Shown here: positions 8,997 through 49,260 of the stretch, piece after piece | How positions within the stretch are numbered: the stretch's first letter is position 1 | How the letters are laid out: each line of letters begins with the position of its first letter | DNA from: an uncultured Erysipelotrichaceae bacterium | GTDB taxonomy: Bacteria > Bacillota_I > Bacilli_A > RF39 > UBA660 | Length of the DNA stretch: 51,204 nt | Assembly (NCBI GenBank): GCA_902795215.1 | Contig: CADBKG010000007.1 | Location: forward strand, 1-51,204 | Direction of reading: 5' to 3' | Made by a program: the position numbers and the translations under genes | Notes under the pieces: generated by a model | The model's input: the letters and a program-made list of their open reading frames with translations, nothing else | What the model was told of the DNA's origin: nothing | Database searches by the model: none

Positions 8997-9020
8997 GGTT
9001 AGTTTTCTAACCTTTTTTTT
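8995..9020 (+). terminator. Rho-independent terminator after the HerA-like gene
   Basis: AAGGTTAG (8995-9002) pairs with CTAACCTT (9007-9014) around a TTTT loop, followed by a T run. Confidence 0.92.
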
Positions 9021-9021
9021 G

Positions 9022-9050
9022 TTGACGTATATACTAATTTTTGTTAAAAT
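9022..9050 (+). promoter_or_regulatory. SigA-type promoter for the SipW-cassette secreted protein
   Basis: TTGACG (9022-9027), a 17-base spacer and TAAAAT (9045-9050). The gene starts 26 bases downstream behind AGGAGGA, so strong expression is likely. Confidence 0.82.
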
Positions 9051-9075
9051 ATTATATATGATAGGAGGAATAAAA

Positions 9076-9624: not shown

Positions 9625-9629
9625 TTTAT

Positions 9630-9653
9630 ACTAACCAAAAGGTTAGTCTTTTT
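9630..9653 (+). terminator. Terminator between the secreted protein and sipW
   Basis: ACTAACC (9630-9636) pairs with GGTTAGT (9641-9647) around an AAAA loop, with a CTTTTT tail. No promoter is seen between it and sipW, so the downstream genes probably depend on read-through at a lower level. Confidence 0.85.
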
Positions 9654-9673
9654 GCATCCTAAGGAGAAAGCCT

Positions 9674-25694: not shown

Positions 25695-25712
25695 AACGGA
25701 GGTGAGAAGTAA

Positions 25713-27158
25713 ATGAGAAAATACGATAAAAAGAATAAGACTAATTTTGCAATAGTTTCAGCAGTATGTATTCTTATACTTCTTGCCTTTGGTTTCTTTA
25801 TAAAAAGGGTATATGATACAGGCAAAAAAGAATATGTGATTAATTCAAATTCAGTTCTATATGATAAAGAAATGAATAAACTTCTTTTAGATGATACTGG
25901 ATTAATTAAAATTAAATGGAGTGGCGCATATTATTTAAAGTATAAAGATAAAGATATAGCGCTTGATAAACAAGTAGTTGTATTTAATAATGCAACTAAA
26001 AATATTAATTTATATGGAACAATATATAAAATAAATATGGATGAAACTATCGATACACTTAGAGATGAGACAATAATAGAAGAAACAATTATCCCAAAAT
26101 TTTATAAACTTGCAGATAGAAAATATCTTTTAGTTGCTCCTACGATTAGAAATGAAAAAGGAGATTTTAGAGCGGATAATTATCTTATTGTTCATTTAGA
26201 CAAAATGGGTAATGCAGAGCTATATAATAATAAAATCAATATGAAAACTCTTACCCCAACTAAATTAGTAACACCAACTTATACATTTGATATAGCAAAT
26301 GAAAAATTAGATTATAGTGGAACTATTATTGATTTAAGAAAAATAATTGGAAGTACTAATCTATATAAAGAAGCAAAAGAGAGTGTTGAGAGTACAGAAT
26401 CTGGAAGTGGATCTGGATCTGGTTCTGGAGGTTCATCAAGTTCGAGTAATTCACAGAATACTACTAATAATTCATCTAGTTCTAATTCAAGCAGGAATTC
26501 TAGTTCTAATAGAAACTCTAATTCTTCAAGTAGTTCTGCAAGTACTGATAATAATTCTTCCGTAGTTGATAATAAAGTTTATCAAGATAAAAACTTTAGT
26601 GTTGTAAAAAATACTATAGGTACTGACACATTAAGTGTTGATTATTCAATATATGATCCTAAAAATGAATATAAATCTGTATATATGGAAATTACGGACG
26701 TAAATAGTGGTAATAAAGAAAGTTATTACTTGGCTAAAAATTCTAATAATATATTGGTTAGAGGATTAAAACCATTAACAAAATATAACGTCGTATATAA
26801 TTATTCTTACTTAGATGATAATAGAGGACTAGTATATGACACATTTAATACTTCATATACGATTACTACATTACTTCCAAATACGACTATTATTGTATCA
26901 AAGCTTACAAATAAGGAAGTAATATATTCTATTAAAGAAGATCAAGCATTAATGCAGGGTGCTAAAGTAGAATTGTATTTGGATGATGAATATAAAGAAT
27001 CATATACATTTACATCTAATTCGCTTGAATCAGCATTTACGGGAAGATTTAATCTATCTAATTATGACAATTTTAGTTATTTAACATTAAAATGTACCGA
27101 AATTAGATATGCAAGTGGTACTGTAAATATTGATTTATCTATTAAAGAAAAGAATTGA
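25713..27158 (+). CDS. Membrane-anchored surface protein with Ser-rich linker (short relative of the giant protein)
   Basis: 481 residues with the same plan as the 1819-residue neighbour. One membrane segment (about 12-31) is followed by a beta-rich domain (about 40-215). A Gly/Ser/Asn-only linker (about 222-284) leads to a C-terminal pair of Fn3-like modules. GGAGGTGAG precedes the ATG, 18 bases after the previous stop, so it is co-transcribed. The linker resembles that of the larger protein in composition and position, suggesting duplication. I do not recognise a named family; a structural surface role near the secretion machine is inference. Confidence 0.75.
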   Translation: MRKYDKKNKTNFAIVSAVCILILLAFGFFIKRVYDTGKKEYVINSNSVLYDKEMNKLLLDDTGLIKIKWSGAYYLKYKDKDIALDKQVVVFNNATKNINLYGTIYKINMDETIDTLRDETIIEETIIPKFYKLADRKYLLVAPTIRNEKGDFRADNYLIVHLDKMGNAELYNNKINMKTLTPTKLVTPTYTFDIANEKLDYSGTIIDLRKIIGSTNLYKEAKESVESTESGSGSGSGSGGSSSSSNSQNTTNNSSSSNSSRNSSSNRNSNSSSSSASTDNNSSVVDNKVYQDKNFSVVKNTIGTDTLSVDYSIYDPKNEYKSVYMEITDVNSGNKESYYLAKNSNNILVRGLKPLTKYNVVYNYSYLDDNRGLVYDTFNTSYTITTLLPNTTIIVSKLTNKEVIYSIKEDQALMQGAKVELYLDDEYKESYTFTSNSLESAFTGRFNLSNYDNFSYLTLKCTEIRYASGTVNIDLSIKEKN

Positions 27159-27166
27159 GGGTTAAT

Positions 27167-27883
27167 ATGAAAAAAAAGCTAGAAAAAATTAAAAGTATGA
27201 TGAATAATGAACCTAAATTATTTGTTTTATTATTAATTCTCATATTGTTTATAATCATATTTATAATATATCGCATTGCAGATAAGTATATGAATTATGA
27301 AAAGAAAGATACAATAAATGCTTATACACACGTGATAAGTCAACAAACTACTTTTAATGCTGATATAACTATTAATAGAAGAGAAGAAATACTCAGTTTA
27401 AAAGCACCAGAAAATATCAATTTAAACAATAGTATAGTGTATTCAAAAGATAAGATTATTTTCCCAGAGAAAGAAATACTTGTTTTAACGAGTGATGTTA
27501 ATAAATTTTATAAAATATCAAAGTATTCATATATTAAAGATAATAATCTTGTTACAAATAAGTTTAAAAAAGATTTAGGTGAGTATTTTATATATAATGG
27601 TAATAATTTATACTTCTTTATTAATGGTGGAACCTTAAAAACTGATTTAGATTCTATTGAATTAAATGATTTGGTTGAAGTTAATGTTCAAAAAGGATAT
27701 ATAGAATATTATCAATATAAAGAAAATAAGATAGGAAGAATAAAATATAAGAACAATATAGAATTTAAAAATCATTATTATAAAGTAGATTTATTAAATA
27801 ATACTCTTGGTAATGAAAAAACAATGCTTCCTGGTTCAACAGAATATTTAGATAATATTACATCACTTGACAAAAAGAAGTAA
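27167..27883 (+). CDS. Third membrane-anchored protein of the set, linker-less
   Basis: 238 residues: a basic N-terminus, one membrane segment (about 18-38) and a beta-rich outer domain, apparently the same type as the N-terminal domains of the two preceding proteins but without Ser-rich linker or Fn3 modules. I choose the ATG at 27167, with GAGGG at the right distance, over an in-frame TTG at 27155 inside the previous gene. It closes the first operon of the block; a strong promoter for the next gene begins just after it. Function unknown. Confidence 0.7.
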   Translation: MKKKLEKIKSMMNNEPKLFVLLLILILFIIIFIIYRIADKYMNYEKKDTINAYTHVISQQTTFNADITINRREEILSLKAPENINLNNSIVYSKDKIIFPEKEILVLTSDVNKFYKISKYSYIKDNNLVTNKFKKDLGEYFIYNGNNLYFFINGGTLKTDLDSIELNDLVEVNVQKGYIEYYQYKENKIGRIKYKNNIEFKNHYYKVDLLNNTLGNEKTMLPGSTEYLDNITSLDKKK

Positions 27884-27890
27884 AATAAAA

Positions 27891-27919
27891 TTGACAAGCA
27901 CTATAATTTAAGATAAAAT
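27891..27919 (+). promoter_or_regulatory. Consensus promoter of pilin-like gene 1
   Basis: TTGACA (27891-27896), 17 bases, TAAAAT (27914-27919). Confidence 0.88.
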
Positions 27920-27955
27920 TAATATAGATTAAGTTAGAAAGAGAGAGATTTAAAG

Positions 27956-28339
27956 ATGATTAATTTATTAACAATTAATTTTTGTTCAAACGCAAAAGAC
28001 ATTTTATCACTAGTAGGTATTATTTTAACTGTATTCAAAATAGGAATACCAATTATCATTATTGCAATTGGTATGGTTGACTTAGGTAAAGCAGCTTTAT
28101 CTTCTAAACCAGAAGAAATCAAAAAACAAGCGACAAGTCTGCTTTGGAGATTCGTTGGAGGAGTATTTATATTCTTCTTACCATCACTAGTTATGCTTTT
28201 ATTTAAGCTTATTGGTCCTTGGGGTGGAGTAAAGGCAAATACAGATTATGATATATGTTATTCTTGCGTAGTCCATCCATGGAGGGGTTGCGATGCATCA
28301 CAAGGAACGGAAGATAAAGGAAATTATCCAAACGATTAA
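27956..28339 (+). CDS. VirB2/T4SS pilin-like double-TM protein 1
   Basis: 127 residues without a cleavable signal. Two hydrophobic segments (about 16-42 and 58-83) flank a basic loop, SSKPEEIKKQ. The second ends in the IFFLPSL pattern. A cysteine sits just before the first segment (NFCSNA) and a CxxC pair after the second (YDICYSC). This hairpin plan with both ends outside fits VirB2-like pilins and the T4SS-pilin family of other phyla. Three relatives follow. Its own consensus promoter and terminator suggest high-level monocistronic expression, as expected for a major subunit. The family assignment rests on topology and context. Confidence 0.7.
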   Translation: MINLLTINFCSNAKDILSLVGIILTVFKIGIPIIIIAIGMVDLGKAALSSKPEEIKKQATSLLWRFVGGVFIFFLPSLVMLLFKLIGPWGGVKANTDYDICYSCVVHPWRGCDASQGTEDKGNYPND

Positions 28340-28354
28340 TAAATCGTTTTTTTT
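28331..28354 (+). terminator. Terminator after pilin-like gene 1
   Basis: AACGATT (28331-28337) pairs with AATCGTT (28342-28348) around an AATA loop, then a T run; it overlaps the stop codon. Confidence 0.9.
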
Positions 28355-28363
28355 CTGCATAGA

Positions 28364-28392
28364 TTGACAAATTAATACAAAAGTCGTATAAT
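28364..28392 (+). promoter_or_regulatory. Perfect consensus promoter of pilin-like gene 2
   Basis: TTGACA (28364-28369), 17 bases, TATAAT (28387-28392): both boxes and the spacing are consensus, the best promoter in the window. Confidence 0.93.
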
Positions 28393-28420
28393 CTAGCTAT
28401 ATTGGAAGGGGGAAAACTAT

Positions 28421-28804
28421 ATGAATGAAGCTAGTTTGAGTAGTTTTTGTCATGGAATATCTCCATTGTTACAATTAGTGGGAGAACTGCTTTTAGTTTT
28501 TAAATTAGTTGTTCCTATACTTTTAATTGTAATATGTATACTAGATGTAGCTAAAGCAATACTTTCTAGTAAATCAGATGAAAATAAAAATAGGTTAAAA
28601 AACTTCTTTTATAGAGTTTTATTTGCTGTACTATTGTTTTTTATCCCTGCATTATTTATGTTATTTTTCAGTTTTAATCCAGAATTTACAGCGGCTAGGG
28701 ATAATAGTGGCCTTGATTATGATGTGTGTTATGACTGTTTATTTTATCCATATAAGGACGAATGTAAGACAGCAGTTGAGATTGCACATTACGAATATGA
28801 ATAA
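28421..28804 (+). CDS. VirB2/T4SS pilin-like double-TM protein 2
   Basis: 127 residues, the same length and plan as pilin-like protein 1. SFCHGI stands before the first membrane segment, the charged loop SSKSDENKNR comes between, LLFFIPAL lies in the second segment, and DYDVCYDC follows it. GGAAGGGGG gives a strong ribosome binding site. It is monocistronic with a consensus promoter and a terminator. The two proteins align along their whole length apart from the last ~20 residues, pointing to tandem duplication and divergence. A role as an alternative or co-assembled pilus or channel subunit is inference. Confidence 0.7.
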   Translation: MNEASLSSFCHGISPLLQLVGELLLVFKLVVPILLIVICILDVAKAILSSKSDENKNRLKNFFYRVLFAVLLFFIPALFMLFFSFNPEFTAARDNSGLDYDVCYDCLFYPYKDECKTAVEIAHYEYE

Positions 28805-28831
28805 AATAAGCTTAAAAAGCTTATTTTTTTT
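28804..28831 (+). terminator. Terminator after pilin-like gene 2
   Basis: A 10-bp perfect stem, AAATAAGCTT (28804-28813) with AAGCTTATTT (28817-28826), and a T run. Confidence 0.9.
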
Positions 28832-28842
28832 GACTTTAATTA

Positions 28843-28871
28843 TTGTTTTTACTCTATTTAAATGTTATAAT
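28843..28871 (+). promoter_or_regulatory. Promoter of the main T4SS-like operon
   Basis: TTGTTT (28843-28848), 17 bases, TATAAT (28866-28871) with an extended TGT. Confidence 0.75.
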
Positions 28872-28890
28872 TACCATAGTGGTGATTCAT

Positions 28891-30111
28891 ATGAAAAAGT
28901 ACTTTAAATATATAATGATTTTAATAATAGGATTATTTGTTTTTAATGGAATAAATGTAAAAGCGGATGATAGTGATTTGTGTGGGAATGCTAAATTTAA
29001 ACTTACTGGCAATCATAAAGCTACTATATGTTCTTTAAGAGGTTATGTAGCTCCACAAGATTTTCAGACAAAGTCAGTAGATTCCCCAAGCTTGTATACT
29101 ATCAACATCTATTATACGCCTACTACAGGTATATGGGAATTGGAAGTTAAAGGTGATAAAAAATTTTCAGAAATTAAGGAAATGTCTATGAAGACAATAA
29201 CAAAGACTTACTCAAATGGAGATTACTCGTTTAATGCTTCAAATTTTGAATGTCCAAAATCTTTTAATCAAATACTGTATAAAACTCATAAAAATTTACT
29301 TTATAAGAGTTATACCATTTCCAAAATTGGTTTTAGCAAAACTGCAACAAAAGTTAATAGCAATCTACAAGTAAAAGGTTTTAAACAAACCGAAAATGGT
29401 TCTACTCTTTTAGTTGATTACCCAAATGATGTCAAAAAATATGCCAAAGAAAAAATAAATGCAATTAATAAATATGAGTGTAGCGACAAAAAACTTAATA
29501 AACTAAAAACTAGTATTAATAGTGAATGTTATTTTGCCGAATTATGTTGGGATGCTAGAACAGAAAAAAAAGACGAGTGTCATTCAGGAGCTAGTCCACT
29601 AACAGATTTGATGACTGCTCAACAAAAGAAAATAAATAACGCAATTAAAGAAAAAATAGATTCTTGTGATTGTAGCGATTATGAGAAGGCTAAAGATAAG
29701 AAAAATTGTGAAAATAACGTGTTAGATATAGAGAGAAAAGTTGAAATAGATAATGCCACGACTGAAAATATTGAAGAAAAAGTAGAAGAAGCAGTAGAAA
29801 ACTTTAATTTTCAACGAGTTGTAATAGACGAAGAAGAATCAACATGTGAAGGAATTCTTTCAAAAGATGGAACAGAGTTTTTACAAAAAGTATTAAAGTT
29901 TGTTCAATATGGTGGAGTTATAGTAGCGTTGTTATCTTCTACACTTGATTTTATAAAATCTGTTTCAAGCGGATCTCAAGACGATTTGAAAAAAGCATCT
30001 AGTAGATTCCTAAAAAGAATGATATTTGCAGCATTATTATTCTTTGTTGTTATATTAACAAATATATTACTTGGTATTTTCAATATAACCGTTCCAAGCG
30101 ATTGTGTGTAA
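28891..30111 (+). CDS. Secreted/membrane protein with Cys-rich ectodomain and C-terminal pilin-like hairpin
   Basis: 406 residues. A signal peptide (about 1-24, ending NVKA before DD) leads to an ectodomain of roughly 300 residues with many cysteines. These include CNxKL-type pairs, DCSDYEK and KNCENN. The last ~78 residues repeat the pilin-like plan: STCEG before the first hydrophobic segment, the loop SGSQDDLKKAS, an LLFFVVIL second segment, and a final DC. The start at 28891 is chosen for GGTGATT and the promoter; the upstream in-frame TTG lies inside the promoter. It looks like a pilin-like subunit carrying an extra outer domain, perhaps a tip or base component. Confidence 0.7.
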   Translation: MKKYFKYIMILIIGLFVFNGINVKADDSDLCGNAKFKLTGNHKATICSLRGYVAPQDFQTKSVDSPSLYTINIYYTPTTGIWELEVKGDKKFSEIKEMSMKTITKTYSNGDYSFNASNFECPKSFNQILYKTHKNLLYKSYTISKIGFSKTATKVNSNLQVKGFKQTENGSTLLVDYPNDVKKYAKEKINAINKYECSDKKLNKLKTSINSECYFAELCWDARTEKKDECHSGASPLTDLMTAQQKKINNAIKEKIDSCDCSDYEKAKDKKNCENNVLDIERKVEIDNATTENIEEKVEEAVENFNFQRVVIDEEESTCEGILSKDGTEFLQKVLKFVQYGGVIVALLSSTLDFIKSVSSGSQDDLKKASSRFLKRMIFAALLFFVVILTNILLGIFNITVPSDCV

Positions 30112-30126
30112 GGAGGATAAAGCATA

Positions 30127-30642
30127 ATGAAAAAAATATTCATTTTACTATTAATGTTGACACTTGTGTTTTATTCTTATGACACTGTTAATGTACAAGC
30201 ATTTAATGAAACTAGGCATGTATTAGCTGTAGATGATTATTCTTCAGAAACAAATGAATGTGGTATAGATAGAGATAATTTTTGTGCAAATTTCTCTAAT
30301 GCAATAGTAATAGTAGGCTACCTTATAATTATTTTAAAAATAGCATTACCACTCGTTATAATAGTTAAAACTACTATTAATTTATTGCCACTTATTACAT
30401 CAGGTAATCCAGATAATTTTAAGAAAGCAATGACATCTATATTAATATCTTTTGTTGGCGCTGTTTTAATATTCTTTTTACCAACTATAATTAATATTTT
30501 CTTAGGATTTACTAATAAATATAATGAAAGTTGGGAAACGGAAGCAACATGTCATGAATGTATATTAAATGCAACGGGAGAAAACTGTCAAAAATATGTA
30601 GATTTAGTTAATAAATGTAAAAATATAAAAAAGGAGGGATAG
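30127..30642 (+). CDS. VirB2/T4SS pilin-like protein 4 with signal peptide
   Basis: 171 residues. A clear signal peptide (about 1-25, NVQA before FN) is followed by DNFCANF, a first membrane segment, the loop TSGNPDNFKKA, a second segment with LIFFLPTI, and ATCHEC with further cysteines. It thus shares the FC...CxxC pattern of the other pilin-like proteins; the signal peptide fixes the N-terminus outside. AAGGAGGA lies just upstream, 15 bases after the previous stop, and the VirB6-like gene follows immediately. The signal-peptide form is the closest of the four to classic VirB2 precursors. Confidence 0.72.
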   Translation: MKKIFILLLMLTLVFYSYDTVNVQAFNETRHVLAVDDYSSETNECGIDRDNFCANFSNAIVIVGYLIIILKIALPLVIIVKTTINLLPLITSGNPDNFKKAMTSILISFVGAVLIFFLPTIINIFLGFTNKYNESWETEATCHECILNATGENCQKYVDLVNKCKNIKKEG

Positions 30643-30643
30643 T

Positions 30644-32596
30644 GTGGTAAAACTATTAACAGGAGTATTCTTTGTTATAGATGAAATGGTTTACAGCATA
30701 GTTAAATCACTTTATACCATTTTTATGTTTATGGGTGAAGTTAGACTATCTGCTGATGAAACTACAGGTGCAATTCTATCAAGAATCTATGTTTTAATAT
30801 TTTTTATAATGGTATTTGTGCTAGCCTATGCACTACTTAATTACATTATCAATCCTGATAAGGTTAATGATAATAATATAGGTGCAACCTCACTATTAAA
30901 AAAGATATTGATATCACTAGGTGTAGTAATTATTTCTCCTATGTTGTTTAGCGAGTTATACTATTTACAACATCTTGTAATAAAATCGCATGTAATAGAA
31001 AATGTAATACTTGGAGGTCATACTTTTAAGTATGAGGATGGTACTGAGGTTGAAGATGATTCTGTAAATGTTAATTATGTTATAGCTGCAGTTTATTCAT
31101 CATTCTTGTATCCAGAGGATGGATCAGCTTGGGATTGCTTGCAGGATGGTATAAAAGGTACTGAATTAGAAGATGATGGTGATTTTGCGGGATATTGTAA
31201 TGCTTATTATCAAGCCGTTTCTACTGGATCGATTTCAGGATTTTCTAGATATTATGCCAAAGATGGTTTTAAATATTTATGGTTTATATCACCAATAGCT
31301 GGTATAGCATTAATATTCTTTATATTATCGTTTTGTATTAATCTTGGCATGAGGGTATTTAAACTTTTAGTATTAGAAATATTAGCCCCAATACCGGCAT
31401 TGTTAGATTTAATACCTGGAAAAAGTGGAACGTTAAAAAAATATTTTGAAACAACTCTAGGAGTATTCGCTGAGTTATTTATATATCAAGCCGTAGTACT
31501 TGGCGGTATGTGGTTAATAACAATGGTGCCAGTGGTTATTCCTGATTTATTCACAAATCTTCCAGGAAATATTGGAATATTTGCATATATGATTTTAATA
31601 TTTGCGATGTTAAAAGTTGCAAAAGACTTACCAAAATTAATATCAGATGTTTTAGGAATAAAAGGCGATGGTGTGATAAAGGCAACAGGCTTAAGAGCAC
31701 TTGGTATGGCAGGAACTGCAGCTGGTATTGGATTTGGTTTAAAACACGCATTTACTGATAAAGGTAATGGAAACTTTGGAAACAGATTACTTGCAGCAGG
31801 TCAAGCTGTTGGACACGGTTTATATGCTAATAGAAATTCAGAATCAATAAGAGATAGTTTTAAAAACTTTAAATCATATAATGAAAAAGTTCAACAAGAT
31901 GCAGCATATAGACAAACAAGAATGTATGATAGAAAAATGGATAGAGATGCATACAAAGACTTTAAGAAAAATAATCCTGGCTTGAATTTTATTGAAGCTC
32001 GTCGTGAATTTAAGAATTTAAATCCAACACTTAGTAATGCTGAATATAAAGATTACACTAGAAAAATCGAACTCAATAAACGTATTACTGATGCAGGAAA
32101 AGCTTTAGAAGATGCGACTTATGGTAAAAATGAAGCTTATAAGCAAATGAAATCAGCAGTTGATTTACAAAAAAACTTATTAGGCAAAGAAAAATTAAAT
32201 GATGGCGACATGGTTACATTAGCTAATGGTCAAACCATGGAATATTCTAAAGTTAAGAACGCTATGGATAAAATTAAAGAAGACGAAATTAATAAAAATC
32301 CTACTGCAGTACATGAATATTTTTCTACAATCAAAAGTATTCAAGCTGCTAATGGAGAGGATGTAGAGCTTCCAGCAGGAGTATCAATAGATGCTAGAAC
32401 TTATAGAGATTCTAGTGGTAATTTTAAAGCTGCAGAATTTATAACCAGTCAAGAGGCAATTAACAATGCTGCAAAAGATAAACAGAAAGCTCTTAAAACA
32501 GATGCATATTTAAATAAGCAAATGGAAGAAATGCAAAAAGAAAAGAATAAAAGTGCAGCAGCTGAAGCTGCCAAGGCAAATAAAGATAATAAATAG
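30644..32596 (+). CDS. VirB6/TrbL-like polytopic channel protein
   Basis: 650 residues starting with GTG behind AAGGAGGG. The first ~360 residues contain about seven membrane segments, including a long amphipathic stretch (SFCINLGMRVFKLLVLEILAP type) typical of VirB6/TrbL. The remaining ~290 residues are a cytoplasmic, Lys/Glu/Ala-rich, coiled-coil-prone tail. VirB6 proteins form the inner-membrane channel of type IV secretion systems; long C-terminal extensions are common in Gram-positive versions. Its place between the pilin-like genes and the VirB3- and VirB4-like genes supports the assignment, although primary-sequence similarity is hard to judge by eye. Confidence 0.75.
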   Translation: MVKLLTGVFFVIDEMVYSIVKSLYTIFMFMGEVRLSADETTGAILSRIYVLIFFIMVFVLAYALLNYIINPDKVNDNNIGATSLLKKILISLGVVIISPMLFSELYYLQHLVIKSHVIENVILGGHTFKYEDGTEVEDDSVNVNYVIAAVYSSFLYPEDGSAWDCLQDGIKGTELEDDGDFAGYCNAYYQAVSTGSISGFSRYYAKDGFKYLWFISPIAGIALIFFILSFCINLGMRVFKLLVLEILAPIPALLDLIPGKSGTLKKYFETTLGVFAELFIYQAVVLGGMWLITMVPVVIPDLFTNLPGNIGIFAYMILIFAMLKVAKDLPKLISDVLGIKGDGVIKATGLRALGMAGTAAGIGFGLKHAFTDKGNGNFGNRLLAAGQAVGHGLYANRNSESIRDSFKNFKSYNEKVQQDAAYRQTRMYDRKMDRDAYKDFKKNNPGLNFIEARREFKNLNPTLSNAEYKDYTRKIELNKRITDAGKALEDATYGKNEAYKQMKSAVDLQKNLLGKEKLNDGDMVTLANGQTMEYSKVKNAMDKIKEDEINKNPTAVHEYFSTIKSIQAANGEDVELPAGVSIDARTYRDSSGNFKAAEFITSQEAINNAAKDKQKALKTDAYLNKQMEEMQKEKNKSAAAEAAKANKDNK

Positions 32597-32609
32597 AAAG
32601 GGGTAAAAT

Positions 32610-32930
32610 ATGAGAGATAGTTATCTAATACCAGCAAATTCAAAAAAAAGTGAATTGATACTGGGTTTGTTTACAACGGTGGATTTGATACTATTTGGTA
32701 CAGGATTGGTAATAACTACCGTACTTATAATAGTATTTCAGGGTGATTTGCAGAGTTTATGGACAGCATTGCTTGTTATGGCTCCTGCACTGATTACAGG
32801 ATTTCTTGTATTCCCTGTACCTAATTATCATAATGTTTTACAGTTGATAATTAATATGTATACATTTTACTTTGTAAGACAAAGAATATATAAATGGAGA
32901 GGTTGGTGTTTTAAAGATGACAGGAAATAA
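32610..32930 (+). CDS. PrgI/VirB3-like protein
   Basis: 106 residues with the compact PrgI-family layout: a short polar start ending in a basic segment (IPANSKKSE), two membrane segments (about 17-41 and 48-68), and an arm ending FYFVRQRIYKWRGW. PrgI/VirB3 proteins tie the VirB4 ATPase to the membrane and almost always precede the VirB4 gene, as here. AAAGGGGT precedes the ATG. Its end overlaps the next gene by 14 bases. Confidence 0.85.
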   Translation: MRDSYLIPANSKKSELILGLFTTVDLILFGTGLVITTVLIIVFQGDLQSLWTALLVMAPALITGFLVFPVPNYHNVLQLIINMYTFYFVRQRIYKWRGWCFKDDRK

Positions 32931-33459
32931 GCCTGCAGAAGAGTGGGTACCAGTAAGAAATATTACAAATGGTATTATTACACTTGATAACGGATATATG
33001 GTAGCTGGAGTAAAAGTAGAACCAAAAAACATATTTATTCTTGATCAACAACAAAGATACAATATTATTAATGCACTAAGAACATTTTATAATAATATTG
33101 ATTATGAATTTTGGTTAATTTGTGCGGGTAGACCAGTTGATATTAATGTTTATTTGGCTACTTTGCAAGTACAATATAATAATTCTAATAATGCTGAGAT
33201 TAGAAAATTATTAATACAAGACATTAATAAAGCTAATATGTTTATGAGTACACAAACTAATGCAGTTGATACTGAATACTATATATTATTTAAAGAAAAG
33301 AGACCAGAAATTATTCAAAAGAGATTACAAAATCTTATTTCTGGACTTGCAAATTGCACTTTGAATGGAAAACAAGCATCAAATGATGATTTAAGAATGC
33401 TTATCGATAATTTCTTTAATGGTGCGCAAAAAACTGAGTTTGGGACGGTGGCATCATGA
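32917..33459 (+). CDS. VirB4/TraC N-terminal part as a separate protein
   Basis: 180 residues without membrane segments or a P-loop. The opening PVRNITNGIITLDNGYMVAGVKVEPKN-like region and the next helical part match the N-terminal domain that precedes the ATPase in VirB4/TraC/PrgJ-type proteins. It overlaps the PrgI-like gene by 14 bases and the ATPase gene by 4 (ATGA). The overlap suggests translational coupling and a two-chain VirB4 rather than a broken gene. Confidence 0.78.
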   Translation: MTGNKPAEEWVPVRNITNGIITLDNGYMVAGVKVEPKNIFILDQQQRYNIINALRTFYNNIDYEFWLICAGRPVDINVYLATLQVQYNNSNNAEIRKLLIQDINKANMFMSTQTNAVDTEYYILFKEKRPEIIQKRLQNLISGLANCTLNGKQASNDDLRMLIDNFFNGAQKTEFGTVAS

Positions 33460-35246
33460 ATCTAAAAAGTGAATTAGCGCCTAAAGGAATAGAATTTAAA
33501 CCTACTGAATTTTCTTTAGGAGAGAAAAAATGTACAATTTTAACGGTTATTAGTTATGCTAAATGGATTCCAATTGGAGAAATGGCGGATATAACTAATA
33601 TTCCTGGAGTAAAAGTTGCAATTAAGCATATTCCAATCGATTTTGCATTAATGCGTAAAATGATTGATAAAGAAATTGCAGATTTAAGGGATAGATTCCA
33701 AAAGGAATATGATAATACTTTAAAAGAAAAGATAAGACAAGATTATGAATCTCTCGAGGGATTTGTTCAACAACTTGCAGCATCTAATTCTAGAATATTT
33801 GATTTCCAAATGCACATTATGCTTTCAGCAGATTCTGATACAGAACTTGAACAAAAGAAAACCGAAGTCAAAACATATCTTACTGGAAAAGAAATGCGTG
33901 CAATTCCATTAATGTTTGAACAAGAAAAGGTTCTAAAATCAATGCTTCCAATATTCCCTAAACAAGATATTGAGGATAGAGTAGGAACACCAATTCCTTC
34001 TGATACTATTGCAGCAATGTATCCATTTATTTTCGATAGTATTAAAGATCCTGGACTTTCTGCATTGCTTGGAGTTGATTTCTCTGGAGGAGTAATACTA
34101 TTTAATCAATTCTTATATCAAATAAAGAAAGAAAATAATAGAAATAATGCCAACATTTTAATTCTTGGACAATCTGGTTCAGGAAAGAGTACTGCAGCTA
34201 AGTTACTTCTTAGAAGTCATTTTAGAAGTGGATATAAAATTATTGCAATAGACCCTGAAGGCGAACTTGAAGAAATGACAAATAGATTTAAGGGAGACTT
34301 TATTAATCTTGGTAAAGGTGGACAATTTGGGATGATTAATCCGCTTGAAATTGTTGTAGATGGTGATGAAGATGAAACAACGCCAGGGCAAGGCGCAAGT
34401 TATACTATATTAACTAGAACAATTTCCACTTTGAAAGCATTTATGGTTTATTATAGCCCTGATATTGAAGATGATGTTTTAACTTTATTTAGTGATGTTG
34501 TACAAGATACATATAAGAGATTTAATATAGATTATGACACTGATTTTAGTAAAATGACTAGTAAAGACTATCCAACTTTTGATGACGTTTATGCCACAAT
34601 TCGTGGTAGACTTCTATCAATGAATGAAAAAACTCATGAAAGAGATATAATGGAACGTCTAGAGCTTAAGATTAGACCATTTACTAAAGAATTAAGATAT
34701 TACTTTAATGGACATACAACTATTACTCCTGAAAGTAATTTTGTGGTATTTAATATAAGAGAATTAATGAATAGTGAATCTTCTATTAGAAATGCATTAT
34801 TCTTTAATATATTAAAATATGCTTGGAGTATGTGCTTAGATAGAAATACTATTACAGTTTTATCTGTAGATGAAGCGCATGTACTTCTTGGAGATAGAAA
34901 TGAGCTTGGTGCAGAATTCCTTGCCCAAATTCAAAGAAGAAGTCGTAAATATAATACAGGTACTATCATTATTACTCAGCAACCAACTGATTTTGCTGCA
35001 CCAAATATAATAATGCATGGTAAAGCAATATTTGACAATGCTAGTTATTATTTAATTATGGGGCTTAAAAAACAAGCAGTTGAAGATTTAGGACAATTGA
35101 TTGATTTAAATGAAAGTGAAATGAATACAATTAAATCCTATACACAGGGTGATGGATTATTTGTATGTGGAAATAGGCGAATGCAAATTAGTGTTATTGT
35201 AACGCCAGATGAACTCGATTCGTTTGGAATGGGTGGAGGTCTATAA
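33456..35246 (+). CDS. VirB4/TraC-type secretion ATPase
   Basis: 596 residues: the rest of a VirB4, comprising a middle region and a C-terminal RecA-like ATPase. Walker A is GQSGSGKST (238-246); Walker B is VLSVDEAHVLL with D472/E473; then RRSRKYNTG and the ITQQPTDF sensor. VirB4 ATPases power pilus biogenesis and substrate passage. The start ATG overlaps the stop of the N-terminal partner. In the ATPase frame a TGA lies a few codons before this ATG, so there is no longer in-frame version. No slippery site was found that would fuse the two. Confidence 0.92.
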   Translation: MNLKSELAPKGIEFKPTEFSLGEKKCTILTVISYAKWIPIGEMADITNIPGVKVAIKHIPIDFALMRKMIDKEIADLRDRFQKEYDNTLKEKIRQDYESLEGFVQQLAASNSRIFDFQMHIMLSADSDTELEQKKTEVKTYLTGKEMRAIPLMFEQEKVLKSMLPIFPKQDIEDRVGTPIPSDTIAAMYPFIFDSIKDPGLSALLGVDFSGGVILFNQFLYQIKKENNRNNANILILGQSGSGKSTAAKLLLRSHFRSGYKIIAIDPEGELEEMTNRFKGDFINLGKGGQFGMINPLEIVVDGDEDETTPGQGASYTILTRTISTLKAFMVYYSPDIEDDVLTLFSDVVQDTYKRFNIDYDTDFSKMTSKDYPTFDDVYATIRGRLLSMNEKTHERDIMERLELKIRPFTKELRYYFNGHTTITPESNFVVFNIRELMNSESSIRNALFFNILKYAWSMCLDRNTITVLSVDEAHVLLGDRNELGAEFLAQIQRRSRKYNTGTIIITQQPTDFAAPNIIMHGKAIFDNASYYLIMGLKKQAVEDLGQLIDLNESEMNTIKSYTQGDGLFVCGNRRMQISVIVTPDELDSFGMGGGL

Positions 35247-35275
35247 TATAAACGGTTAGGTGGTGATTTTATTCC

Positions 35276-37231
35276 GTGGATGATGATAACAAAGAATTAA
35301 ATAATATTGATGAAACCGAAGTTAATAGCATTGATGAAAAAGCTTTTTCAAAAGCTATTACCCCAATAAAAAAAGCTATCAATATTAAGGGAAATATTAA
35401 AGTTTTATGGAATAAAAATCCCATCTTACTTTTAACAATTGCTGGTGGAGCAGCAATGTTTATATTTATAATATTTGGTATTGTTTTAATTAACAACTAT
35501 ACACCATTTAACCATTTAGAGTTTAGCGAAGAAGTAGAAAATGTTACTGAAGATGATCAATACAAAGATGAATTTGAAAGCTTTTGGTATGATTTGTGTA
35601 CAGATGAAACAGATCCAAGTTGTACAAGTTCACAAAAAAGTGATAATAAACAACTAATAAAAGATCAAAAATCTTTTTATAAAAAGTTAAATAAAAAAAA
35701 TTTGACAGAACAACAAAAAAGAATAGTACTTGCTACTATTTTTTATGGGTATAGTATGGATCAATTTATGCCAGGTGGAGCATATAGTGAAACTGATGCT
35801 ACAGAGCTTCCTGATGAGGCTGAAGAAGTTGATGTTGATGTTGAAGAAAACTTTGACTTTGATGAACAAAAAGGGCATATTAAAGAACTTTCAAAGGCAG
35901 TAAAGAAAGATTCTACTGGAGATTATTTTTTTGAAACATACTTGTTATCTAGTGATTATCTTGATTCTAAACCAGATGCATATAAATATAGAAAACAATA
36001 TGCTGAGGCGCATGGATTAAATATATCTGATTGGGAAAACTGGGATGAAGAAGAAATAGCTGGATATAGAAAACAAATGGCTGATGATATTAAAGCAATT
36101 GTTGATGCTTACACTGAGAATAATCCTAATGGAAGTGCACTTAGTGCATGTGGAAGCGGAGAATATTGGTGGCCAATAGGTTCAAGTGAAACAACAACTG
36201 AAAATGGTGTTACTTTTGCAAGTGGTACACCTTCTACTACTGTAGTAACTAGTTCTTATGGATGGAGAGTACATCCAATAAGCCATGTTTGGAAAAACCA
36301 TAGAGGTGAAGATATCGATGGTCAAGAAAATGTTACCAACGTTATTGCTTCTATGGGTGGAACCGTTTCTGAAGTTGTAACGGGATGTACAAATGGTAAT
36401 TATAGTTGCGGTGGTGGCTGGGGTAATCAAGTTGTTATCACCGATACTAAGGGAAACCAACAAAGATATGGTCATTTAGTTGGTAGTTCTATAACTGTTA
36501 AACAAGGTGATACTGTTGCTCAAGGTCAGGTTATTGCAAAAGTTGGTACTACTGGTAGTTCAACAGGACCACATTTGCATTTTGAAATGATTGTTAATGG
36601 TGAACAAGTGCCACCAGGAAAAAAATATAAACCAACACAAGGGTCTACTCAGGAAGTAGATAATCCAAATTTCTATATTGATCCAGATAATCCAAGGCCT
36701 TCAGGAAATGGAACTGCAGGTTGTACAAATGGGGCAGTCGATGGAGAAAGTAATATACAAACAGTATGTTTATCATTTAAAAATGAAGGCTATAGTGATG
36801 TGGCTACAGCAGCAGTACTTGTTAATATGCATTATGAATCGAATTTTGATAACCAATGTGTTAATAGTATTGGTGCATCAGGACTTGCTCAGTGGTTAGA
36901 TCGTTTCCCAAATCTATATAAGGCATATCAAGAAAATTGGATTGATCCAAAGAATCAAGTTGAATTTATGTTTAATGAACTGAACACATCAGAATCTGCA
37001 TCTAAGAGAGTATTAGAAAATGGAACAGAAGTAACATCGCTAGCAAGAAATTTCTGTAATAGTTTTGAAAGACCTGGAGCATCAGAATGTGCAAAAAGAT
37101 CAGAATCAACAACAGCTAATAAATATTTGAATTATGTAAAAAATGGCTGTCAAGGTACTGTTGAAAGAATAGCACCAAATCCTGTTGATTGTGTTAGAAG
37201 AGTTGGAACCTTCCAGGAGGTATTAAAATGA
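35276..37231 (+). CDS. Bifunctional wall hydrolase: M23 peptidase plus phage-tail-lysozyme-like domain
   Basis: 651 residues. The start is GTG behind TAGGTGGTGA. After a cytoplasmic region of about 58 residues comes one membrane segment (about 58-80) and a helical stalk. An M23/LytM peptidase follows with H342-x3-D346 (HRGED) and the H433-x-H435 pair (PHLHFE), all zinc ligands present. The C-terminal part (about 495-640) resembles phage-tail lysozyme domains, with E521 (MHYESNF) as likely catalytic acid and GASGLAQWLDR after it. Two-domain hydrolases of this kind are the VirB1-equivalents of Gram-positive T4SS and open the peptidoglycan for the channel. Confidence 0.9.
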   Translation: MDDDNKELNNIDETEVNSIDEKAFSKAITPIKKAINIKGNIKVLWNKNPILLLTIAGGAAMFIFIIFGIVLINNYTPFNHLEFSEEVENVTEDDQYKDEFESFWYDLCTDETDPSCTSSQKSDNKQLIKDQKSFYKKLNKKNLTEQQKRIVLATIFYGYSMDQFMPGGAYSETDATELPDEAEEVDVDVEENFDFDEQKGHIKELSKAVKKDSTGDYFFETYLLSSDYLDSKPDAYKYRKQYAEAHGLNISDWENWDEEEIAGYRKQMADDIKAIVDAYTENNPNGSALSACGSGEYWWPIGSSETTTENGVTFASGTPSTTVVTSSYGWRVHPISHVWKNHRGEDIDGQENVTNVIASMGGTVSEVVTGCTNGNYSCGGGWGNQVVITDTKGNQQRYGHLVGSSITVKQGDTVAQGQVIAKVGTTGSSTGPHLHFEMIVNGEQVPPGKKYKPTQGSTQEVDNPNFYIDPDNPRPSGNGTAGCTNGAVDGESNIQTVCLSFKNEGYSDVATAAVLVNMHYESNFDNQCVNSIGASGLAQWLDRFPNLYKAYQENWIDPKNQVEFMFNELNTSESASKRVLENGTEVTSLARNFCNSFERPGASECAKRSESTTANKYLNYVKNGCQGTVERIAPNPVDCVRRVGTFQEVLK

Positions 37232-38082
37232 AACGTGAAAAAACAGAAGGTAATAACAATAAAGTATATATTATAATTATTATATTACTAGTTTTGTTTG
37301 GCCTTATGCTTTCGTCAGTACTGATGAAAGAAAAAAATGATAGTGAGAATAAAATAGATATCGAAAAAAGTTCAACTAGAAACGTAGCAGATTATATATC
37401 ATTCTTTTCTATTCAAAACATAATAAATAAATTCATTTTTTCAAATAATGCTGAAGAAGTATATTCTATGTTAGATGGAGAATATATAAATGAAGAAGGA
37501 ATAACACAAGATAATGTAATCGAGCTAGCCAAAAAGGGACTCATTGGTATGAATTACAAGTGTCAAAAAGTTCAAGAAAACAAAGCAAATAATAGATTTA
37601 AAGACGTATATATTACTAATGGTATAATAATTGAAAATGGTTTAGAAGATATCACTGTCGTTGATAATGATTTTAAAGCAATTGTATTATTGGATTATGA
37701 TAATTTAACTTTTAGCATAATTCCAAATACTGATAATCTAAAAGAAGCTTTAAAAAATAAAAAGAAAGTTTTGATAGAAAAAAACAAATATAATGTTCTT
37801 CCATCTACTGGAGTTAAAGATTATTATGATATATGTTTAACTTATTATAATGATTTTGTGTTTAAAATTAATTATTTACCTGATGAAGCATATAATTTGC
37901 TTGATTCTGATAGTAAAGAAAAAGTATCTAAAACCGATTTATATAATCTGTACGGTTTTACTTCTTTAAATTCTTGTAAATATGATTCTGAAGGCGCAAC
38001 TTATATTGCAACGGCAACAAATGAAAAGATAATTCAATTTAAAGAAAAGAGTATAATGGACTATAGTGTTTATTTAGAATAG
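37228..38082 (+). CDS. VirB8/TcpC-like bitopic protein
   Basis: 284 residues. A short basic cytoplasmic end and one membrane segment (about 13-32) are followed by an outer region that appears to contain two related domains. INKFIFSNNAEEVYSMLD (first) and YNDFVFKINYLPDEAYNLLD (second) occupy similar places. Paired NTF2-like domains behind one TM are the hallmark of TcpC/VirB8 scaffold proteins. It overlaps the hydrolase stop by 4 bases (ATGA) with AGGAGGT upstream. The assignment is by architecture and context, not by strong sequence match. Confidence 0.65.
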   Translation: MKREKTEGNNNKVYIIIIILLVLFGLMLSSVLMKEKNDSENKIDIEKSSTRNVADYISFFSIQNIINKFIFSNNAEEVYSMLDGEYINEEGITQDNVIELAKKGLIGMNYKCQKVQENKANNRFKDVYITNGIIIENGLEDITVVDNDFKAIVLLDYDNLTFSIIPNTDNLKEALKNKKKVLIEKNKYNVLPSTGVKDYYDICLTYYNDFVFKINYLPDEAYNLLDSDSKEKVSKTDLYNLYGFTSLNSCKYDSEGATYIATATNEKIIQFKEKSIMDYSVYLE

Positions 38083-38133
38083 CTTTTTTAAAAAGTTTGT
38101 TATATAATATGGAATCGAAAAGGGTGACTTTAT

Positions 38134-40467
38134 ATGAAATTAAAAATTAGAGTAAAAAAAGAAGATTTTATGCTTTTCTTATTAGTATGTGTAATTTTAT
38201 TTATAGGATGTTTAATTTTAGCTGCTAATTTTGTTTCGTTTGGAGCAAATGAACAGTTTGTAGGATTAAATATTTTTAAGAATTTTAGTATGAGCACATT
38301 AGGAGTAGCTATTGTCTTATTTATTATTTCACTTGTAATAATATTTATGAATGTATCAAGTACCATATTTGATCTAGAAAAAGGTGGACTTGGTATAATC
38401 TTTGGTGAAAAAGAGGAAAAAGGTTATAACTCATGGATGACTGATAAAGAGATGAAAAATGCCCGTAATATTGTTAAAGTTCCATTAACCGCTGAACATG
38501 CTGAAGGTGGAGGCTTACCACTTATTAATGATGGTAAAAACATGTGGGTAGATAATGGTGAAAATCATACTCTTATTATTGGACAATCTGGTTCAGGTAA
38601 AACAACTGCTCTTGTTGATCCACAAGTTAGAAGTTTAATGAAACATGATGAAAGTATGGTTATTGCCGACCTTAAAGGTGAAATATATAGAGACCATGGA
38701 GCTGAGTTAAAAGAACGTGGTTATAATGTAATTATAGTTAATTTCCGTTATCCAAGAGAAGGTAATGCATGGAATCCTCTTACAATTCCATATAGAATGT
38801 ATAAACAAGGAAAAAGGGATAAAGCAAAAGAATTACTTGAGGATATTAGTTCTAATATCGTAAAAGGTGATGGAAAGAATGATGATCCATTCTGGACTGA
38901 TTCTGGATCAGATTACTTTTCTGCTTTAGCACTAGCTTTATTTAAAGATGGTTCTGAAAATGAAGTTAATATAACTTCTATTAGTAATATGGCTTCTGCA
39001 GGAGAAACTAAAAATAAAACTAGTAGAAGAACATATGCTCAAGAATACTTTTCATTAAAAGGTGAAGAATCAGATGTATATCAATATGCTAAAGGTACTG
39101 TAAATGCTCCTGAAGATACTAAAAAGAGTATTTTATCGGTGTTCCTTAGTAAAATTAGAATATTCTCAACTCGTGAAGAGTTATCAGAAATGCTATCATA
39201 TACAGATTTCAATATGGAGAATATTGGAAAAGAAAAAACTGCTGTATTTATGATAGTTCATGATGAGAAAACAACTTACCATTCTCTTGCAACTATTTTT
39301 ATTAAACAATTATACGAAGTATTAATAGATGTAGCACATCAAAATAAAGATGGTAGATTAAAATTTAGAACTAATTTTATATTAGACGAGTTTGCTAACA
39401 TGCCAGAATTAAGAGATGTTGATTCAATGGTTACAGCAGCGCGTTCAAGAAATATTAGATTTACATTTATTATCCAGAACTTCTCACAACTAGATGATGT
39501 ATATGGTGAGAAAAAAGCAGAAACAATACGTAGTAACTGTGCTAATATGATTTATCTATTAACTAATGAACTTCGTTCTCTTGAAGAAATTAGTAAATTA
39601 TGTGGTGAAGTTAAATCAAAAGAAAAAGAAAAAACGGTTTCAACACCACTTGTTACAGTTACAGACCTTCAAAAGATGAAACCAAATGAAATTATAGCAA
39701 TTCGTATGCGTCAAAAACCATTTAGAACAACATTAAAACAAGGATTTAATACTAATTGGGGTAAAGAATATCCTAAGGTTTTCCCTGAAGAAAGAGAAAT
39801 GTTCCCTGTTAAATCATTTAATATGAAAGAATATGTAGATAGAGAACAAAGGAAAGCGACTGTAGAAAAAATTAATGGAGCAAGACTTGGTGAATCAAAC
39901 GAAATGGATAGAATACCAAGAGCTAATAGAGATTATAATTTTGACCCTCTTGCAGGTTTTAATCCAATGAATCCAATGTCAAACCCTAGTAGCAGACCAA
40001 CTGGGGTTGGTCCTATGGGAGGAACAAATGATTTATTTGGTGGTATGAATAGTAGTCGTCCTGGTCCAAATGCAGGATTTAGTCCAGGTATTGATATTGA
40101 TGCATTGATTAAAGAAATTGATGAACAAATAGCAAAAGAAGAAGCAAAAGAAAAAGCAAAAAGAGAAGAATACGAAAAAGAAAAAGCAGCAGCGCTTGAA
40201 AAAGAAACTAAAGCTGAGACTAAAGAAGTTGTTCCAGTAGAAAAAGAAGTTCCAAAGGCAACAGAAACCACAAAAGAATTAATAACAACTCCTCAAAATG
40301 ATACATATAAAGTTACATCTGAAAAAGATACTTTTGAAAATAAACCATCAGGTAAGACAGAACCTATACCAAAAGTACCAGTTGATAACTCAAGTGTAGT
40401 TATAGATAATAACGTAGTAACGGATGATCAATTCTTTGATGACTTCTTTGGTGATGATGATTTTTAA
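38134..40467 (+). CDS. VirD4/TraG-type coupling ATPase
   Basis: 777 residues. Two membrane segments lie at the N-terminus (about 12-35 and 50-72). Walker A is GQSGSGKTT (150-158), followed by MVIADLKGEIYRDHG. Walker B is FILDEFANMPE with D418/E419, then ARSRNIRFTFIIQN. This is the VirD4/TraG/TcpA type that selects substrates and hands them to the T4SS. After about residue 600 the protein becomes a Pro/Gly/Asn-rich and then Glu/Lys/Thr-rich tail ending in an acidic DDQFFDDFFGDDDF. AGGGTGAC precedes the ATG. No relaxase gene is adjacent, so the substrate may be protein. Confidence 0.93.
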   Translation: MKLKIRVKKEDFMLFLLVCVILFIGCLILAANFVSFGANEQFVGLNIFKNFSMSTLGVAIVLFIISLVIIFMNVSSTIFDLEKGGLGIIFGEKEEKGYNSWMTDKEMKNARNIVKVPLTAEHAEGGGLPLINDGKNMWVDNGENHTLIIGQSGSGKTTALVDPQVRSLMKHDESMVIADLKGEIYRDHGAELKERGYNVIIVNFRYPREGNAWNPLTIPYRMYKQGKRDKAKELLEDISSNIVKGDGKNDDPFWTDSGSDYFSALALALFKDGSENEVNITSISNMASAGETKNKTSRRTYAQEYFSLKGEESDVYQYAKGTVNAPEDTKKSILSVFLSKIRIFSTREELSEMLSYTDFNMENIGKEKTAVFMIVHDEKTTYHSLATIFIKQLYEVLIDVAHQNKDGRLKFRTNFILDEFANMPELRDVDSMVTAARSRNIRFTFIIQNFSQLDDVYGEKKAETIRSNCANMIYLLTNELRSLEEISKLCGEVKSKEKEKTVSTPLVTVTDLQKMKPNEIIAIRMRQKPFRTTLKQGFNTNWGKEYPKVFPEEREMFPVKSFNMKEYVDREQRKATVEKINGARLGESNEMDRIPRANRDYNFDPLAGFNPMNPMSNPSSRPTGVGPMGGTNDLFGGMNSSRPGPNAGFSPGIDIDALIKEIDEQIAKEEAKEKAKREEYEKEKAAALEKETKAETKEVVPVEKEVPKATETTKELITTPQNDTYKVTSEKDTFENKPSGKTEPIPKVPVDNSSVVIDNNVVTDDQFFDDFFGDDDF

Positions 40468-40473
40468 AAAAAT

Positions 40474-40502
40474 TTGTATTTTTCATATTTGTGTGTTATA
40501 AT
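40474..40502 (+). promoter_or_regulatory. Promoter of the rimP-nusA-infB operon
   Basis: TTGTAT (40474-40479), 17 bases, TATAAT (40497-40502) with an extended TGT. Confidence 0.78.
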
Positions 40503-49109: not shown

Positions 49110-49260
49110 TAACATTTATATAGCGCCTGGAGGTTTAACCTTGACGAGGACGAGAATTAATCGAATTTCGGCGGATATTCTCGCGGATTTGTAGTTCGTT
49201 AGATATATTACAAAAAATAAAATTAAGATTATAACAAAAGATATATCAATACTAAAGCAG
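49110..49260 (+). ncRNA. glmS ribozyme
   Basis: A self-cleaving riboswitch in the glmS leader. The conserved core is visible: AGCGCC at 49122-49127, AACCTTGACGAGGACGAG at about 49137-49154, ATCGAATTTCGGCGGAT at about 49160-49176, and the following CTCGCGGAT pairing strand. Cleavage is expected between A49122 and G49123 when glucosamine-6-phosphate binds, which leads to mRNA decay and lowers GlmS. The 3' boundary is approximate because the P3/P4 side is AT-rich. Confidence 0.93.

What the first reader, a model, noticed from the sequence alone, without database searches (positions are those of the whole stretch)
27891..40467. Chromosomal T4SS-like machine without a relaxase, set between housekeeping genes
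Seen: in order, four double-TM pilin-like proteins, a VirB6-like protein, a PrgI/VirB3-like protein, a two-part VirB4 ATPase, a wall hydrolase, a VirB8-like protein and a VirD4-like ATPase. Known: this is close to a minimal Gram-positive T4SS. Odd: no relaxase, no integrase and no att-like repeat at the borders. scpB lies 5' and rimP-nusA-infB 3', with normal promoters. Inference: a vertically inherited secretion or contact system that delivers protein or builds an appendage, rather than a mobile conjugative element. I know of no description of this arrangement.
Basis: partly seen in the sequence, partly recalled or inferred. Interest (0 to 1): 0.82.

Follow-up and report, generated by a model that had tools for sequence, protein, structure and literature searches.

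The report
Chromosomal secretion machine lacking conjugation enzyme
A whole order-level group of small-genome, uncultured gut Bacilli carries, fixed in the chromosome, a needle-like type IV secretion machine that has no DNA-transfer relaxase beside it and often sits next to pilus genes, so it probably contacts or feeds something into neighbouring cells rather than spreading itself.

Summary
Window 27956-40467 encodes an intact Gram-positive-type T4SS: four pilin-like proteins, VirB6, VirB3/PrgI, a VirB4 split into two ORFs, an M23+lysozyme hydrolase, a tandem-NTF2 VirB8/TcpC-like protein and VirD4. The conserved unit is longer than reported: three surface proteins upstream (20235-27883) travel with it in a congener. 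It is no single-strain oddity: close VirB4s occur in 215/241 sampled genomes of the window's order, in none of the other families sampled in the class, and on no PLSDB plasmid above about 30% identity. VirB4 and NusA+InfB divergence agree (Mantel 0.78), and 28/30 relatives keep one fixed site (rhodanese-DedA-RmuC). So inheritance is mainly vertical. The scpB-rimP address is a later relocation within the genus. No PF03432 relaxase was seen near any VirB4 whose coordinates were listed; unlinked MOB genes exist in the genome. Additions: Tad pilus genes lie directly upstream in about half of relatives; every complete VirD4 ends in an invariant [FY][FY]DDFF acidic tail. The closest described system is the relaxase-less Patescibacteria T4SS. 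I read it as a new variant of that kind; delivery to neighbouring cells is inferred, not shown.

The parts
20235..25694 (+). 1819-aa surface protein, one N-terminal TM, Ser-rich linker, FN3-like region; first gene of the unit
   Evidence: homologue 41% over 1845 columns in the same place in congener G560; weak fn3 hit below cut-off
25713..27158 (+). 481-aa membrane-anchored surface protein
   Evidence: 55% homologue in the same place in G560
27170..27883 (+). 237-aa membrane-anchored protein (alternative start 27155)
   Evidence: 37-38% homologue in the same place in G560
27891..27919 (+). sigma-70-like promoter, TTGACA-17-TAAAAT, shortly before the first pilin
   Evidence: consensus scan only; promoter matches in the region are no commoner than in shuffles
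27956..28339 (+). VirB2-like pilin 1 (two TM, Cys at both ends)
28421..28804 (+). VirB2-like pilin 2
   Evidence: same BLAST family as pilin 1
28888..30111 (+). 407-aa secreted protein with C-terminal pilin-like hairpin
   Evidence: same BLAST family
30127..30642 (+). VirB2-like pilin 4
   Evidence: PF18895 E 6.9e-4, below cut-off
30644..32596 (+). VirB6-like polytopic membrane protein
   Evidence: NF045890 and NF045848 matches; 7 predicted TM
32610..32930 (+). VirB3/PrgI
   Evidence: PF12666 E 0.002; aligns to residues 2-96 of NF045975
32917..33459 (+). VirB4 N-terminal ORF (VirB4N, TrsD-like)
   Evidence: NF045975 107-282; present in 82/82 loci compared; aligns to N-terminus of an undivided VirB4
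33456..35246 (+). VirB4 ATPase ORF (VirB4C), Walker A intact, overlaps VirB4N by ATGA
   Evidence: NF045975 294-890, E 1.6e-103
35276..37231 (+). wall hydrolase (VirB1-like): TM + M23 peptidase + phage-type lysozyme
   Evidence: PF01551 and PF18013 over cut-off
37228..38082 (+). VirB8/TcpC-like protein: TM + two NTF2-like domains (two separate ORFs in several relatives)
38134..40467 (+). VirD4 coupling ATPase
   Evidence: NF045973 over cut-off; PF02534, PF12696
40417..40464 (+). invariant acidic/aromatic C-terminal tail of VirD4 (VTDDQFFDDFFGDDDF)
   Evidence: [FY][FY]DDFF in the last 16 residues of 39/39 complete VirD4s; DNA pattern found only at VirD4 in the genomes searched

Best explanation
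A chromosomally fixed, mainly vertically inherited monoderm T4SS that lost (or never had) its relaxase and serves its own cell. Shown: complete VirB1/2/3/4/6/8/D4 set, split VirB4, order-wide presence, purifying selection, no relaxase near the VirB4 genes compared, a conserved ancestral site with Tad pilus genes upstream, and relocation of the block (with three surface proteins) to rimP in the window's genus. Inferred: VirB4/VirD4 drive a channel through VirB3-VirB6-VirB8, the hydrolase opens the wall, the Cys-bearing pilins and surface proteins form a short contact structure, and VirD4 hands over protein substrates, recruited or gated partly through its invariant C-terminal tail, to a neighbouring cell, probably working with the Tad pilus as the grappling device, much as proposed for Patescibacteria.
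For: Components. Prevalence: VirB4 in 166/193 family genomes and 215/241 genomes (82/92 genera) of the order sample; all 34 hits of a 296-genome class sample lie in the window's family. No plasmid relative above about 30% identity, none in IMG/VR. Vertical signal: Spearman 0.78 between VirB4 and NusA+InfB identities for 42 taxa, null maximum 0.32 of 2000 permutations. Fixed site: rhodanese next to VirD4 in 28/30 GTDB loci. Tad: TadZ-like gene within 10 kb upstream, same strand, in 23/48 loci with enough flank; TadA and RcpC/CpaB supported by Pfam; a similar neighbourhood beside a distant T4SS on plasmid CP074574.1. Relaxase PF03432 over cut-off in only 36/193 genomes, and never within 70 kb of a listed VirB4. 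Omega 0.016-0.04 for VirB4C in six close pairs. VirD4 tail 39/39.
Against: No substrate, partner or target cell is identified; transport of protein is not shown. VirD4 keeps all DNA-transfer-type domains, so DNA transport is not excluded. Relaxase classes other than PF03432 and (own genome only) PF01076 were not surveyed family-wide, and VirB4 coordinates of the weakest matches were not listed, so the proximity test is not exhaustive. In the window's genus the block changed address and its 5' neighbours differ between congeners, which is less than fully fixed. One congener (G083) lacks it, though that bin also lacks nusA. About half of loci show no Tad within 10 kb (long pilin arrays may push it out of view).
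Confidence: 0.55

Rival explanations
1. A conjugation machine for hire: the fixed T4SS exports DNA, mobilising unlinked MOB elements (such as the Mob_Pre/PF03432 element on contig C36) or chromosomal DNA.
For: VirD4 has PF02534, PF10412 and PF12696 domains. The same assembly has an unlinked Mob_Pre and a partial PF03432 gene. Mycoplasma ICEs move chromosomal DNA with a similarly minimal T4SS (PMC12857230).
Against: PF03432 relaxases are in only 36/193 genomes against VirB4 in 166/193, so most carriers of the machine lack a detected client of that class. The congener G083 carries a separate, canonical conjugative element with an undivided VirB4, its own VirD4 and an adjacent MobL relaxase.
Confidence: 0.2
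2. Chiefly an appendage: the pilins, surface proteins and T4SS core build an adhesive pilus, and little or nothing is translocated.
For: One to eight pilin-like genes detected per locus, with conserved Cys; surface proteins at the 5' end; Tad neighbours.
Against: VirD4 with intact Walker motif and an invariant tail is kept next to the core (39/40 Walker A; 39/39 tail); pilus building alone is not known to need a coupling ATPase (general knowledge).
Confidence: 0.2
3. A degenerate integrative conjugative element that recently lost its relaxase and integrase in this one strain.
For: The block lies at a different address in the window from that in most relatives.
Against: Order-wide presence, shared ancestral site, no relaxase near relatives' loci either, intact ORFs under purifying selection.
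Confidence: 0.05

Closest known systems
Patescibacteria (Saccharibacteria) chromosomal T4SS (PMC12102498; PMC12857230)
   Same: Monoderm type, chromosomal, mostly without relaxase, array of divergent VirB2-like pilins (PF18895), separate VirB4 N-terminal ORF (TrsD), peptidase/lysozyme near VirB4, small genomes that also keep type IV pili.
   Different: Here VirD4 is next to the core (in Patescibacteria mostly not), VirB8-like proteins are present, Tad pilus genes adjoin the locus in many relatives, VirD4 has the invariant tail, and the host is an order of Bacilli. Direct VirB4 phylogeny against Patescibacteria could not be made with the collections available.
Mycoplasma ICE T4SS (Mbov_0395/0396/0397; NCBIfam NF045849, NF045889, NF045975)
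   Same: Best-scoring named VirB4 family; pilin-like, VirB6-like, VirB3 and VirB4 components.
   Different: The NF045975 profile spans one polypeptide matching VirB3+VirB4N+VirB4C, which are three ORFs here; those are ICEs, and the score is far below cut-off (347 of 590 bits); no VirB1/VirB8 in Mycoplasma ICEs (PMC12857230).
Conjugative Gram-positive T4SS, CD1110/CD1115, pCF10/pIP501 types (MPF_FATA)
   Same: Component list; VirD4 over NF045973 (CD1115) cut-off; surface proteins at the 5' end resemble PrgA/B/C placement (from memory).
   Different: No linked relaxase or integrase; VirB4 split; fixed chromosomal inheritance.
Mycoplasmatota bacterium zrk4 plasmid CP074574.1
   Same: VirB4C 30%, separate upstream VirB4N-like ORF (weak match), PrgI, TrbL/VirB6, pilin domain, and CpaB/TadZ/CpaF/TadB/TadC-type genes immediately downstream.
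   Different: Plasmid-borne, VirD4 elsewhere on the plasmid and without the DDFF tail, Tad on the 3' side.
Streptococcus suis 89K T4SS (protein export; PMC12857230)
   Same: Gram-positive T4SS with six core components reported to export a protein.
   Different: On a pathogenicity island, not an order-wide chromosomal trait.

Membership tests
Monoderm (MPF_FATA-like) T4SS | VirB4 ATPase with P-loop | tested here: met
   NF045975 E 1.6e-103, PF19044 over cut-off, Walker A 82/82
Monoderm (MPF_FATA-like) T4SS | VirB3, VirB6, VirB8, VirB1-like and VirD4 beside VirB4 | tested here: met
   VirB3 and VirB6 are below curated cut-offs
Conjugative element (ICE/plasmid) | Relaxase linked to the T4SS | tested here: not met
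   None in the window; PF03432 never within 70 kb of a listed VirB4; unlinked Mob_Pre/PF03432 on C36
Conjugative element (ICE/plasmid) | Integrase, att repeats or tRNA border | tested here: inconclusive
   No integrase ORF recognised near the unit, no bordering repeat, only tRNA 7.7 kb away; no profile search for integrases was run over all flanking ORFs
Conjugative element (ICE/plasmid) | Patchy, horizontally moving distribution | tested here: not met
   215/241 order sample; Mantel 0.78; 28/30 fixed site
Patescibacteria-type T4SS | Chromosomal, lineage-wide, mostly without relaxase | tested here: met
Patescibacteria-type T4SS | Array of PF18895 pilins | tested here: met
   17/39 members hit PF18895; 181 pilin-like ORFs in 60 loci
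Patescibacteria-type T4SS | Separate TrsD-like VirB4 N-terminal ORF | tested here: met
   82/82 loci; homology to TrsD itself not tested
Patescibacteria-type T4SS | VirB4 inside the Patescibacteria clade | not testable with these tools
Patescibacteria-type T4SS | Required for growth on a host cell | not testable with these tools
   Uncultured, metagenome-derived relatives
VirB8/TcpC family (37228-38082) | TM followed by tandem NTF2-like domains | tested here: met
   pLDDT 87.6; TcpC 3ub1 Z 9.0 over 107 residues, rmsd 3.1; NTF2 Z 7.7 for the second domain
Tad pilus (relatives and own contig C1) | TadA ATPase and RcpC/CpaB | tested here: met
   PF00437 about 1e-27; PF16976 1e-5 to 2e-6, just below cut-off
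Tad pilus (relatives and own contig C1) | TadB, TadC, TadZ, Flp/TadE | tested here: inconclusive
   Assigned by order and topology; no Pfam support in these proteins

The most novel reading that the evidence does not exclude
Tad pilus and relaxase-less T4SS form one composite contact machine, with VirD4's invariant DDFF tail as a docking site for a shared, still unknown cargo adaptor, and this order of small-genome Bacilli are contact-dependent epibionts or parasites that arrived at the Patescibacteria lifestyle independently.
Probability: 0.2. Interest if true: 0.85.

Novelty: new variant of a known kind. Interest (0 to 1): 0.62.

Why it matters
A recent review states that nearly all known Gram-positive T4SS functions are limited to DNA transfer and that dedicated Gram-positive effector systems are a long-standing open question (PMC12857230). 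Here is an order-wide, vertically inherited one in uncultured, small-genome Bacilli. It offers a second lineage, besides Patescibacteria, in which to ask what a relaxase-less monoderm T4SS is for, plus two handles for that: the Tad neighbourhood and an invariant VirD4 tail.

Tried and rejected
Ancestral scpB-rimP synteny: rejected. Programmed frameshift joining the VirB4 halves: rejected, because the junction varies (-8, -4, -1, +1 nt) among loci. Second VirB4 on contig C35 as a true paralogue: unresolved; C35 also carries a second copy of RmuC, single-copy in most relatives checked, and its VirB4 runs against the species signal (-0.37), so it may be a foreign contig in the bin (4.6% contamination) or a recent transfer; tetranucleotides (0.837 against 0.857-0.929 for own contigs) do not settle it. 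Pilin fold search in PDB gave nothing usable (helical hairpins only). The DDFF tail as a signal on other proteins: no other copies in 15 genomes searched. The three 5' surface proteins as paralogues of each other: not clearly supported. IMG/VR search: no relatives. Papers on T4SS or Tad in RF39-like Bacilli: none found in the held library; subscription papers and preprints were not searchable.
Full report
Observation. The window is a whole 51.2-kb contig (C7) of a 1.34-Mb, 37-contig assembly. VirB3, VirB4N and VirB4C align in series to one NCBIfam model, NF045975, at 2-96, 107-282 and 294-890; VirD4 exceeds the NF045973 cut-off and carries PF02534 and PF12696; the hydrolase has M23 and lysozyme domains. 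Pilins are weak singly but belong to PF18895 as a family (17/39). The 284-aa protein, with no family match, folds confidently (87.6) as a TM helix plus two NTF2-like domains and has TcpC as its top structural row; several relatives encode the two halves as separate ORFs, which supports the reading.

True extent. In congener G560 the three genes corresponding to 20235-27883 precede the same T4SS genes (41, 55 and 37% identity), while the 5' neighbour there is not scpB. The unit is therefore 20235-40467. Two good promoter-like sites lie before pilins 1 and 2, but such matches are no more frequent than chance in this AT-rich region. No terminator-like site was found between virD4 and rimP; a TATAAT at 40497-40502 could serve rimP (sequence reading only).

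Split VirB4. All 82 loci compared have two ORFs, with junction offsets of -8, -4, -1 or +1 nt, so it is an ancestral division, not a sequencing error or frameshift signal. The congener G083 carries a different, canonical element with one 778-aa VirB4 (31% identical), a VirD4 and a MobL relaxase; the two profiles tile along that VirB4. This also shows that a linked relaxase is detectable in this group when present.

Distribution and inheritance. Close VirB4s occur in 166/193 family genomes and 215/241 in the order sample; in a class sample all 34 hits lie in the window's family. Plasmid relatives stop at about 30%; IMG/VR has none. At least one apparent absence is an assembly break: G059 lacks VirB4 but holds VirD4 near a contig end beside DedA-RmuC. 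VirB4 identities track NusA+InfB identities (0.78; null maximum 0.32; 42 taxa). In 28 of 30 GTDB loci with enough sequence a rhodanese gene follows VirD4, often with DedA and RmuC. In the window's genome and in three relatives of its clade or genus, DedA-RmuC stands without the T4SS, and the T4SS is at rimP in the window and in L053. I infer one relocation out of the ancestral site in this clade, with further movement on the 5' side. VirB4C omega is 0.016-0.04 in six close pairs; hydrolase and VirB6 evolve faster.

Relaxases. PF03432 is over cut-off in 36/193 genomes. By comparison of the listed coordinates (read by eye), shared contigs occur only in G008 (about 71 kb apart), G111 (about 114 kb) and G126 (about 84 kb, below cut-off). 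The window's assembly has one Mob_Pre and one partial PF03432 on contig C36, without T4SS genes.

Tad neighbourhood. In 23 of 48 loci with at least 9 kb upstream, a TadZ-like gene and often TadC, TadB and TadA lie just 5' on the same strand, with sortase and large secreted proteins beyond in the longer contigs read. The window's genome keeps such a set on contig C1, apart from the T4SS. A distant T4SS on plasmid CP074574.1 also has CpaB, TadZ, CpaF and F-family genes next to it. Recurrent adjacency suggests, but does not prove, joint work.

VirD4 tail. All 39 complete VirD4s end in a peptide containing [FY][FY]DDFF, after a fast-changing linker; in 15 genomes the DNA pattern occurs only once per T4SS, at VirD4 where the position could be compared, and the VirD4s of the G083 element and of CP074574.1 lack it. 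A short invariant end on a variable linker is typical of a docking motif (general knowledge); its partner is unknown.

Mechanism. Best reading: a host-serving contact machine; core and energy parts are shown, the translocation of protein to neighbours and coupling to Tad are inferred. Rivals: DNA mobilisation in trans, or an adhesive appendage.

Known relatives. The nearest described system is the Patescibacteria T4SS: relaxase-less, pilin-rich, with TrsD and wall hydrolases, essential for growth on host cells in one species (PMC12102498, PMC12857230). I could not place these VirB4s against it. No paper on such a system in these Bacilli was found in the held library. The lineage resembles GTDB order RF39 (small-genome, uncultured Bacilli), but that name is from memory and was not tested; public titles say uncultured Bacilli, Tenericutes or Erysipelotrichaceae.

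Noticed in passing
L032 (own contig C35, 14.5 kb): A second T4SS of the same family at the ancestral site, with a second RmuC; its VirB4 does not follow the species signal. Contaminant contig or recent transfer.
   Followed up: partly
window 11905-14250: 781-aa secreted protein with an apparent Hint/intein-like C-terminal half, beside a SipW-like peptidase and another secreted protein (8899-10801); a partial homologue lies next to rimP in L053.
   Followed up: no
window 49111-49257: glmS ribozyme (Rfam RF00234, 74 bits) upstream of the glmS gene.
   Followed up: no
L140 (G083 C17): Canonical conjugative element with undivided VirB4, VirD4, MobL relaxase and a DNA methyltransferase in a congener.
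   Followed up: partly
CP074574.1 13997-45207 (L244, L245): Plasmid of Mycoplasmatota strain zrk4 with T4SS and Tad-type genes side by side; MOB-suite calls it non-mobilizable.
   Followed up: partly
L141 1789-4698 (G194 C13): Acyltransferase and AMP-ligase genes inserted inside the pilin array of the congener locus.
   Followed up: no
window 14783-16261: spoIVA homologue kept in a 1.3-Mb genome.
   Followed up: no
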